DNA from: Roseibacillus sp.
GTDB taxonomy: Bacteria > Verrucomicrobiota > Verrucomicrobiia > Verrucomicrobiales > Akkermansiaceae
DNA: 47,733 nucleotides
Assembly: GCA_002709395.1 (NCBI GenBank)
Contig: PAQU01000075.1
Span: 6,743 to 54,475 of the forward strand
Direction: 5' to 3'
Shown: one piece after another, positions 45,401 through 47,733 of the stretch
Layout: the number at the start of each line of letters is the position of its first letter
How positions within the stretch are numbered: position 1 is the stretch's first letter
Notes under the pieces: model-generated
The model's database searches: none
What the model was told of the DNA's origin: nothing
Seen by the model: the letters and a program-made list of their open reading frames with translations, nothing else
Made by a program: the position numbers and the translations under genes

Positions 45401-45835
45401 TCAGTGCTGGTGTTCCTGTCGACAGCCTTCGCACCCCACCCAGTCGCTGGAACCGTCAGGATAGAATTCCTTCTTCCAGATGGGCAGGCGGTGCTTGACT
45501 GCGTCGATGATGAACCGGCAGGCGTCAAAAGCCTCAGCCCGATGGGGAGAGGAAACGACCACCATCACGGCGCATTCACCAATTTCCAGAGAGCCGGTCC
45601 GGTGTGTCGCCCGGGCATGATCCAGGCCAAAGCGCTCCATGGCTTCCCGGACGATGCGTTGTCCCTCCTTCTCTGCGACCGCCCTGTGTGCTTCATACTC
45701 CAACCGGAGTACCTCCCGGCCCTTGTGATGATTACGGACCGTGCCCTCGAAGATGGCGATAGCCCCGGCATGCGGGTCACTTGCAGCTTCGCGAAGGCCA
45801 GCCGAGTCGATGGGATCAGCGGTAAGAAGGAACAT
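45401..45835 (-). CDS. moaE: Molybdopterin synthase catalytic subunit MoaE
   Basis: AGAIAIFEGTVRNHHKGREVLRLEYEAHRAVAEKEGQRIVREAMERFGLDHARATHRTGSLEIGECAVMVVVSSPHRAEAFDACRFIIDAVKHRLPIWKKEFYPDGSSDWV. ATG at 45835 chosen. Confidence 0.96.
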   Translation of the reverse strand: MFLLTADPIDSAGLREAASDPHAGAIAIFEGTVRNHHKGREVLRLEYEAHRAVAEKEGQRIVREAMERFGLDHARATHRTGSLEIGECAVMVVVSSPHRAEAFDACRFIIDAVKHRLPIWKKEFYPDGSSDWVGCEGCRQEHQH

Positions 45836-45842
45836 GCCGTTA

Positions 45843-46673
45843 CTAGCCTCCTGCGAAGGGTGGGAAGAGGGTAAGTTTGTCCTGGTTGGCCAGAGGATGG
45901 TTCCAAGGTTGGAATTCATCATTGATGGCGATTTTTACGGCTTCCAGCTCGAGGGAGAGTCCGCGGGACATGCGCAGTTCCTCCCAGAGGCCCGCGGCAG
46001 TTGCCGATTCAGTGCGGACTTCCTCTTCTGATATTCCTGCATCTTCACGGAGAATCCCGCAGTATTCCACTACGATAGTCTTGGCGCATCGGCCGTTCTT
46101 AAGGGCAGCCCGGGCTTCCTGAAGATCCTCGGGGCGGTTACAGTTGTCCAAGGCGGATTTTTCCGGCAGATCCACCTCTTTACGATCGAGCGAGGAAAGG
46201 AATCTGCGGGCACAATATACTTTTTCGGAGAGGCAGTGAGCGAGGGCCTTGGCTGATACTGGTTCGTAGATCGTGCAGAGTGGTTCGGGCTTACCATCGA
46301 AGCGGCTGATGAAGCAGGTGGCTTCACGATCAGGGTCCCGGGCTTCCCGGAGATATTGCAAGACGGAAGAGGTCAGGAAGGGCAGGTCGCAGGCTGTAAC
46401 CAGCCAGGCAGATTCAGGAGCCCTGGCAAAGGCCGCTTCCAGACCGGCCAGAGGCCCGGCATCACGCCGCAGGTCCGGGATGGTAGCGCAATGGTAGGTT
46501 CGCAGGTCATCTCCTGCGGTGGAAAGGTAGGTCTTCTCAGTGACCAGCTTGAGAAGTTCGAGCCCCTGGTCGCGAAGGGAGAGACCATCGGTCAGAACGA
46601 GGTCTGCCTTGTCGGAACCCATGCGCCGGCTTTTACCGCCCGCGAGGAGCAGTCCGTTAAGAGGTGCATTCAT
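45843..46673 (-). CDS. MobA-MoaD fusion: molybdenum cofactor guanylyltransferase fused to molybdopterin synthase sulfur carrier
   Basis: N-terminus LLLAGGKSRRMGSDKADL...DAGPLAGLEAAFA...VTACDLPFLTSSVL (MobA). C-terminus KTIVVEYCGILREDAGISEEEVRTESATAAGLWEEL...VKIAINDEFQPWNHPLANQDKLTLFPPFAGG (MoaD with terminal GG). Confidence 0.9.
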   Translation of the reverse strand: MNAPLNGLLLAGGKSRRMGSDKADLVLTDGLSLRDQGLELLKLVTEKTYLSTAGDDLRTYHCATIPDLRRDAGPLAGLEAAFARAPESAWLVTACDLPFLTSSVLQYLREARDPDREATCFISRFDGKPEPLCTIYEPVSAKALAHCLSEKVYCARRFLSSLDRKEVDLPEKSALDNCNRPEDLQEARAALKNGRCAKTIVVEYCGILREDAGISEEEVRTESATAAGLWEELRMSRGLSLELEAVKIAINDEFQPWNHPLANQDKLTLFPPFAGG

Positions 46674-46678
46674 GCGTA

Positions 46679-47155
46679 TTACACGGCATTGAAGTCACTC
46701 TTGCCACCCCGCTTCTCTACAAGATGAAGCCGGGTAATTTCGATGGAAGGGTTGGAGGCCTTACACATGTCATATATCGTGAGGGCGGCCACCGAGGCCC
46801 CGGTGAGGGCCTCCATTTCAACCCCGGTCCTGCTGCTGGTGGAGCACTCGCATAAAACACGGAGGGAGGAGTCGTTCTCGGGCTCAATTTTGACATCGCA
46901 CTTGTCAAGTGGCAGAGGATGGCAGAGAGGAATCAGGGAAGCGGTCTGCTTGGCAGCCATGATGCCGGCAAGAATCGCGGTGTTCAGGACGGACCCCTTC
47001 CTCGTCTGGAATCCCTCCTCCTGCAGCCGCCCCATGAGCTCAGAGCCAAGAATGACCACGCATGCGGCTCTTGCAATCCGGCTGGTTACGGCCTTGGAGC
47101 CAACATCGACCATGCGCGGCTGGCCAGCCTCGTCAAGATGGGAGAGTTTGCTCAC
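46679..47155 (-). CDS. moaC: Cyclic pyranopterin monophosphate synthase MoaC
   Basis: LSHLDEAGQPRMVDVGSKAVTSRIARA...KGSVLNTAILAGIMAAKQTASLIPLCHPLPLDKCDV...SSRTGVEMEALTGASVAALTIYDMCK. Confidence 0.98.
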   Translation of the reverse strand: MSKLSHLDEAGQPRMVDVGSKAVTSRIARAACVVILGSELMGRLQEEGFQTRKGSVLNTAILAGIMAAKQTASLIPLCHPLPLDKCDVKIEPENDSSLRVLCECSTSSRTGVEMEALTGASVAALTIYDMCKASNPSIEITRLHLVEKRGGKSDFNAV

Positions 47156-47207: not shown

Positions 47208-47733
47208 TCAGAGCCAGGACCGGAAGGGAAGAAGGCTGCCCCGGGGAAAGTCTTTCTGGTCTGCAGGGAGTTCGATAAACCCATCGGACTCTATCGCCGA
47301 GGCGAAGTCCCCGGAATTTGAGAGGGGGGTGGGTTTGGCGATGAGGGAGGCTTTTTCCTGCTGGAGGCTCACCGGAATGCTCCAGGCAAAGGGGGGGTCG
47401 AACCTGATTTCCGAGGCAAGTGAGACTGTGCGCACCACGGATTGCTGGTTCTGGGTAGCCTCTAAAAAGGGACGAACGTAGCGATGAAAGGTCACCTGGA
47501 CCGACATGGGGTTGCCCGGCAGGGCAAAGACGGGAGGAGGACCGGACCAGAAGGCAAGGGGTTTTCCGGGACGCTGTGCCACGCCGTGAAAGGAAGGGGC
47601 TCCGAGAAGAGATTCGATGACCGGGCGAACGAAATCGTATTTTCCCTTTGAGATGCCGCCACAGAGGAGAATCAGGTCGGAGCCAAGATGCTCCCGCACC
47701 GCGGTAGCGGTTGCGTCGGGATCGTCGGGGAGG
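47208..47733 (-). CDS. moeA: Molybdopterin molybdenumtransferase MoeA (partial; N-terminus beyond window)
   Basis: DLILLCGGISKGKYDFVRPVIESL...GVAQRPGKPLAFW...PVFALPGNPMSVQVTFHRYVRPFL; frame stays open to the window edge (LPDDPDATATAVREHLG). Confidence 0.95.
   Translation of the reverse strand, partial: LPDDPDATATAVREHLGSDLILLCGGISKGKYDFVRPVIESLLGAPSFHGVAQRPGKPLAFWSGPPPVFALPGNPMSVQVTFHRYVRPFLEATQNQQSVVRTVSLASEIRFDPPFAWSIPVSLQQEKASLIAKPTPLSNSGDFASAIESDGFIELPADQKDFPRGSLLPFRSWL

What the first reader, a model, noticed from the sequence alone, without database searches (positions are those of the whole stretch)
45843..46673. MobA-MoaD fusion that keeps the free C-terminal diglycine
One ORF joins a MobA-like guanylyltransferase (LLAGGKSRRMGSDK) to a MoaD-like ubiquitin-fold sulfur carrier ending ...PPFAGG at the stop codon. 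MoaD must be adenylated and thiocarboxylated on that Gly-Gly, so the domain order preserves function. The fusion physically couples the sulfur carrier (an early step) to nucleotide attachment (the last step), and sits directly upstream of moaE.
Basis: partly seen in the sequence, partly recalled or inferred. Interest (0 to 1): 0.65.

Follow-up and report, generated by a model that had tools for sequence, protein, structure and literature searches.

The report
MobA–MoaD fusion protein in Akkermansiaceae
One gene joins two ordinary molybdenum-cofactor enzymes, the sulfur carrier MoaD and the nucleotide-adding enzyme MobA, and this joined form is the normal one in a large family of Verrucomicrobia; it looks like a recurrent merger of two neighbouring genes rather than a new pathway.

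Summary
On the minus strand, 45843-46673 encodes one 276-residue protein: a MobA-type domain (1-193) followed by a MoaD domain (198-276) ending in a free Gly-Gly. It sits between moaC and moaE. It is not a sequencing error: the same fusion occurs in over 50 related loci, including single-contig genomes, across Akkermansiaceae, with independent fusions in two other families of the phylum. Relatives outside the family, and some genomes inside it, carry mobA and moaD as adjacent, often overlapping, separate genes. The fused MoaD is under purifying selection. In one lineage, five genomes carry a second moaD-moaE pair; there the fused MoaD has decayed (four lost the Gly-Gly) while MobA stayed conserved and no moaE was seen beside it. 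This natural experiment supports the fused MoaD as the working sulfur carrier, and shows MobA does not need it. That argues against obligate coupling of early and late steps. The likeliest account is a bifunctional protein from repeated fusion of neighbouring genes, its tail left free, unlike MoaD-MoaE fusions, which need cleavage. Caveats: no MoeB and no MGD-dependent enzyme were found in this 86%-complete genome. New variant of a known kind.

The parts
45843..46673 (-). mobA::moaD fusion gene, 276 aa, ATG start at 46673, TAG stop 45845-45843
   Evidence: homologous fusions
46095..46673 (-). MobA domain, about residues 1-193: LLAGGKSRRMGSDK nucleotide loop, ACDLP (Asp96), NCNRPED (Asn177, Asn179)
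   Evidence: Pfam NTP_transf_3 3.5e-29; invariant G12, G13, R17, M18, G19, K22, D96, N177, N179 in 18 diverse fusions; best solved-structure fold matches are MobA 3ngw, 1h4d, 1e5k
45846..46082 (-). MoaD domain, about residues 198-276, beta-grasp fold with free C-terminal Gly275-Gly276
   Evidence: Pfam ThiS 1e-11; profile match to E. coli MoaD 1fm0_D residues 2-81; ubiquitin-type strand/helix order in the model
46083..46094 (-). short linker after the last MobA helix; no conserved internal start codon at the junction
   Evidence: gap between MobA and MoaD profile hits is mostly 24-30 bases across the family
45401..45835 (-). moaE, catalytic subunit of MPT synthase, the partner expected for the fused MoaD
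   Evidence: Pfam MoaE 2.5e-39; aligns through the VKHRLPIWKKE segment with solved MoaE proteins
45847..45852 (-). AGGAGG formed by the Ala-Gly-Gly codons of the fusion, 11 bases before the moaE ATG; possible ribosome-binding site of moaE
   Evidence: sequence; inference
46679..47155 (-). moaC
   Evidence: Pfam MoaC 2.1e-49, NCBIfam TIGR00581 over its cut-off
47208..47733 (-). moeA, 3' part; continues past the window end, 409 aa in the contig

Best explanation
The gene makes a two-domain protein of the molybdenum-cofactor pathway. Its C-terminal MoaD domain is the sulfur carrier of MPT synthase: a MoeB-type E1 adenylates the free Gly-Gly, a sulfur donor turns it into a thiocarboxylate, and the tail inserts into MoaE, encoded next door, to put sulfur on cPMP. 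Its N-terminal MobA domain separately links GMP to Mo-MPT to give MGD. The fusion most likely arose by loss of the stop codon between two adjacent, overlapping genes (gene order mobA-moaD-moaE), which is tolerated because it leaves the MoaD tail free. Any benefit (equal dosage, stability) is secondary, and there is no need for handover between the domains. Shown here: architecture, conservation, purifying selection on both domains, independent origins, decay of the fused MoaD where a second moaD-moaE pair exists. Inferred: the catalytic activities, use by MoaE, lack of proteolytic release.
For: Both domains pass Pfam cut-offs and match E. coli MobA and MoaD by profile; AlphaFold model with confident domains and MobA as top fold match. 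Gene order moeA-moaC-mobA::moaD-moaE, moaA divergent. The fusion is the only ThiS/MoaD-family match in its own genome. Gly275-Gly276 invariant in 18 diverse fusions. Close pairs of intact fusions mostly show dN/dS of 0.04-0.23 in the MoaD part (one pair 0.32), usually at or below the MobA part. Natural replacement: genomes G006, G019, G079, G124, G128 each hold a separate moaD (ending PPVSGG) directly beside the only full-length moaE hit. Their fused MoaD ends ...GELSGSP...SGDSTG...AASSTR...SRRSAP (no Gly-Gly) or IPHPAGG, and no moaE motif was seen downstream of the fusion, unlike intact relatives. In the decayed pair L154/L155 MobA dN/dS is 0.07 and MoaD 0.65. Split relatives have mobA followed at once by moaD, often overlapping; the MobA tree needs three fused/split changes, with separate fusions in f31 and f11.
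Against: No MoeB-type E1 was found in the window's genome; its one ThiF-family hit scores best as TcdA. No MGD-binding enzyme was found there either: no PF01568, PF00174 or PF02738 match, and the PF00384 match is NuoG within a nuo operon. The assembly is 86% complete, so absence is weak evidence. Genus relatives carry another MoaD/SAMP1-like carrier next to a MoeB-like E1, which might also serve MoaE. G132 has a decayed MoaD without a detected second moaD (72% complete). The five decayed genomes belong to one lineage, so they are few independent events. Neither domain reaches the NCBIfam equivalog cut-offs.
Confidence: 0.8

Rival explanations
1. The fusion exists for functional coupling: the tethered domains concentrate late and early enzymes in one complex (MPT synthase, MoeA, MobA) and channel the unstable pterin.
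For: The fused form is the rule in most genera of the family, with nearly constant linker length, and it arose at least three times. Within Akkermansiaceae the split genes seen in g14 fall outside the family's fused clade on the MobA tree, so no simple re-splitting was seen.
Against: MobA stays conserved after the tethered MoaD decays. Split adjacent genes are normal in other families and in part of g14. The two domains are not consecutive in the pathway. Other Moco genes fuse in many combinations (PMC11237513).
Confidence: 0.15
2. The translated fusion is cut, or MoaD is also made alone from an internal start, so that free MoaD is the active species.
For: MoaD-MoaE fusions (MoaX; D. radiodurans MoaD-MoaE) are cleaved to work (PMC4326299, PMC11237513). 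Some fusions have an in-frame ATG or GTG near the junction.
Against: Here the Gly-Gly is already at the C terminus, so no cleavage is needed. Only 12 of 59 fusions have an ATG near the junction, only 3 have a start with a good Shine-Dalgarno match, many of the loci listed have no start codon there at all, and positions are not conserved.
Confidence: 0.1
3. The MoaD domain serves another sulfur transfer (for example thiamine), or is only a structural appendage of MobA.
For: No ThiS was found in the window's genome. Decayed MoaD remnants remain attached and in frame in g7 genomes.
Against: Several relatives have a separate ThiS-like protein ending IAAGG, and moaE sits next to intact fusions. Intact tails are under strong purifying selection and the domain matches MoaD models better than other carrier models.
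Confidence: 0.05

Closest known systems
Separate mobA, moaD, moaE genes in the same order (other Verrucomicrobiota families; Komagataeibacter plasmid NZ_CP041350)
   Same: Same proteins, same order, often overlapping ends
   Different: Stop codon between mobA and moaD; two polypeptides
MoaD-MoaE fusions (MoaX of Mycobacterium tuberculosis; Deinococcus MoaD-MoaE)
   Same: MoaD fused to another Moco biosynthesis enzyme
   Different: There MoaD is N-terminal, its Gly-Gly is internal and must be freed by proteolysis (PMC4326299, PMC11237513); here it is already the C terminus
Named MobA fusions in NCBIfam: MobA/MobB (PRK14489, PRK14490), MoaC/MobA (PRK14500)
   Same: MobA domain fused to another Moco gene product
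   Different: None of the bifunctional models hit pairs MobA with MoaD
C-terminal carrier fusions: MoaD on aldehyde ferredoxin oxidoreductase (Azoarcus), ThiS on sulfite reductase (Genome Biol 2006, PMC1779556)
   Same: Beta-grasp carrier placed last in the chain, keeping its tail free
   Different: Different N-terminal partner; MobA is not mentioned in that paper's text
MoaD-MoeB fusions of Thaumarchaeota and Rokubacteria (PMC11237513)
   Same: Fusion involving MoaD
   Different: Partner is the activating E1, not MobA

Membership tests
MobA (Mo-cofactor guanylyltransferase) | NTP_transf_3 domain with LAGGxSxRMGxDK loop and metal-binding Asp | tested here: met
   key residues invariant in 18 diverse fusions
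MobA (Mo-cofactor guanylyltransferase) | Passes NCBIfam MobA equivalog cut-off (TIGR02665, 151.85 bits) | tested here: not met
   86.2 bits, though far better than the MocA model at 24.8 bits
MobA (Mo-cofactor guanylyltransferase) | GTP:Mo-MPT guanylyltransferase activity | not testable with these tools
   needs enzyme assay
MobA (Mo-cofactor guanylyltransferase) | An MGD-dependent enzyme in the same genome | tested here: inconclusive
   none in the 86%-complete genome; other members of the genus have strong full-length PF00384 matches
MoaD (sulfur carrier of MPT synthase) | Beta-grasp ThiS/MoaD domain ending in Gly-Gly at the C terminus | tested here: met
MoaD (sulfur carrier of MPT synthase) | Passes NCBIfam moaD equivalog cut-off (TIGR01682, 66.15 bits) | tested here: not met
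   39 bits
MoaD (sulfur carrier of MPT synthase) | MoaE partner encoded in the genome | tested here: met
   next gene
MoaD (sulfur carrier of MPT synthase) | MoeB-type E1 in the genome | tested here: inconclusive
   only a TcdA-like protein in this incomplete genome; three genus relatives have a MoeB-like E1
MoaD-MoaE (MoaX-type) fusion | MoaD N-terminal to MoaE with an internal Gly-Gly | tested here: not met
   partner is MobA and Gly-Gly is terminal

The most novel reading that the evidence does not exclude
MobA-MoaD is a real assembly platform: the tether holds MPT synthase (through MoaE) and MobA in one complex with MoeA, so that MPT is made, metallated and guanylylated without release. 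The lineage that switched to a second moaD-moaE pair would then have lost this channel.
Probability: 0.1. Interest if true: 0.65.

Novelty: new variant of a known kind. Interest (0 to 1): 0.38.

Why it matters
Full-text searches of an open-access library found no description of a MobA-MoaD fusion, and none of the named NCBIfam bifunctional models hit here covers it, so genomes of this family may be annotated as lacking moaD. It gives a clean contrast to MoaD-MoaE fusions: placing the carrier last avoids the need for cleavage. The genomes with a second moaD-moaE pair are a natural gene-replacement experiment linking the Gly-Gly tail to MPT synthase partnership.

Tried and rejected
Sequencing error or missed stop: rejected, since the fusion recurs in dozens of independent assemblies, several of them single-contig. 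Internal translation start giving free MoaD: not conserved. Own-genome ThiF hit as MoeB: scores best as TcdA. Own-genome PF00384 hit as an MGD enzyme: it is NuoG in a nuo operon. A scan of plasmid records found no clear fusion outside the phylum, only adjacent separate genes; other phyla were not surveyed systematically because the scans were capped. The papers read and searched do not describe this fusion; subscription journals were not searchable.

Full report
OBSERVATION. The ORF at 45843-46673 is on the minus strand. It encodes 276 residues, with Pfam NTP_transf_3 at 7-162 (3.5e-29) and ThiS at 202-276 (1e-11), both above gathering cut-offs. NCBIfam ranks MobA models well above MocA (86 against 25 bits) and moaD first among carrier models, though no equivalog cut-off is reached. 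A profile of the family matches E. coli MobA (1e5k) and E. coli MoaD (1fm0_D). AlphaFold2 gives mean pLDDT 92.3 and pTM 0.87, with an alpha/beta MobA domain to about residue 193 and a beta-grasp domain from 198; the last residues are among the least certain. The best fold matches are solved MobA structures.

CONTEXT. The order on the minus strand is moeA, moaC, mobA::moaD, moaE. Beyond the window lie a divergent moaA and a MOSC-domain gene. The stop codon of moaC and the start of the fusion are 5 bases apart, and moaE starts 7 bases after the fusion's stop codon. The window lies in a 3.6 Mb, 86%-complete genome whose closest named relatives are Roseibacillus and Akkermansiaceae assemblies.

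DISTRIBUTION. One protein-based scan of a collection with one genome per GTDB species returned 15 full-length fusions, 51-76% identical. Within the family, 153 of 195 genomes have a ThiS-family match. Of the loci read, most genera carry the fusion, including single-contig genomes G048, G082 and G130. In part of genus-group g14, mobA and moaD are separate, overlapping ORFs. A phylum survey of 388 genomes found fusions in two further families (G259 and G434 in f31; G305 in f11), and otherwise split genes, many with moaD starting at or before the mobA stop. In a MobA-domain tree of 82 sequences the fused/split label needs three changes: the Akkermansiaceae fusions fall on one side of a starred branch, and f31 and f11 fuse separately inside the split group. 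Linker lengths agree with this: 24-30 bases between profile hits in most of the family, 57-87 in f31, 12 in f11. The split genes of g14 group with other families, which suggests replacement by a foreign split locus (inference).

SELECTION AND A NATURAL EXPERIMENT. In close pairs of intact fusions, MoaD dN/dS is mostly 0.04-0.23 (one pair at 0.32) and usually no higher than that of MobA. In g7, five near-complete genomes (G006, G019, G079, G124, G128) each have a second, separate moaD ending in PPVSGG directly followed by moaE, the only full-length moaE hit found there (G079 has one further weak partial match). In four of them the fused MoaD no longer ends in Gly-Gly, and in the fifth the tail reads IPHPAGG instead of IPPVAGG. 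No moaE motif was seen downstream of these fusions, whereas intact relatives show it. Between two decayed copies (L154, L155) MobA is 93% identical with dN/dS 0.07 while MoaD is 51% identical with dN/dS 0.65. L155 comes from G132, a 72%-complete genome with no second moaD detected. These genomes form one lineage, so they are few independent events. The checked intact g7 genome G064 has only the fusion and a ThiS-like protein, with moaE beside the fusion.

MECHANISM. From pathway knowledge, MoaD must be adenylated by an E1 and thiocarboxylated at its terminal glycine before it serves MoaE. The fusion leaves that end free, unlike MoaX, in which the Gly-Gly is internal and cleavage is required (PMC4326299). 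No conserved internal start would give free MoaD. MobA acts after MoeA, downstream of MPT synthase, so there is no direct handover. The decay of MoaD without decay of MobA shows that MobA does not depend on its attached carrier. I therefore favour a simple merger of neighbouring genes with both activities kept (0.8), over functional channelling (0.15).

GAPS. In the window's own genome I found no MoeB-type E1, no ThiS and no MGD-dependent enzyme; its PF00384 hit is NuoG. Genus relatives do have strong PF00384 enzymes, several with an in-frame TGA, and three inspected relatives have a MoeB-like E1 next to a SAMP1/MoaD-like carrier. Incompleteness of the assembly is the simplest reading.

KNOWN OR NOT. 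Searches of an open-access full-text library for MobA-MoaD found nothing. Papers on MoaD fusions list MoaE, MoeB, AOR and others but not MobA in the passages read. None of the NCBIfam bifunctional models matched is MobA/MoaD. It is a new variant of the well-known habit of Moco genes to fuse.

Noticed in passing
L084, L086, L153, L154, L156 (fusions) with L108, L117, L118, L119, L122 (second moaD) and L134-L138 (moaE): Genomes with a second moaD-moaE pair have a decayed or decaying MoaD domain on the fusion while MobA is conserved; a natural gene replacement.
   Followed up: yes
L162:2571-3696, L163:368-1425, L164:2760-3828: Genus relatives carry a 91-114 aa SAMP1/MoaD-like carrier ending LPPM(S/A)GG directly beside a MoeB-like E1 of about 256 aa, away from the Moco operon; its pathway is unknown.
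   Followed up: partly
window 45847-45852 (-) and relatives: The codons of the C-terminal Ala-Gly-Gly form AGGAGG or GGAGG just before moaE in nearly all Roseibacillus fusions; the penultimate Gly codon is GGA in 25 of 55 fusions against 22% GGA among other Gly codons. It may double as the moaE ribosome-binding site.
   Followed up: partly
L158 (G061): A MobA domain in one open frame with what looks like a MOSC-type domain in a g14 genome; the window's own contig has a separate MOSC gene near moaA.
   Followed up: no
L160 (G027): A same-genus genome has a second standalone moaD ending LFPPFSGG, on the same contig as a PF00384 enzyme.
   Followed up: no
L061-L065: PF00384 enzymes of genus relatives carry one in-frame TGA, which may encode selenocysteine in a formate dehydrogenase.
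   Followed up: no
L081, L082 (f31) and L083 (f11): Independent MobA-MoaD fusions in other families of the phylum, with longer or shorter linkers.
   Followed up: partly
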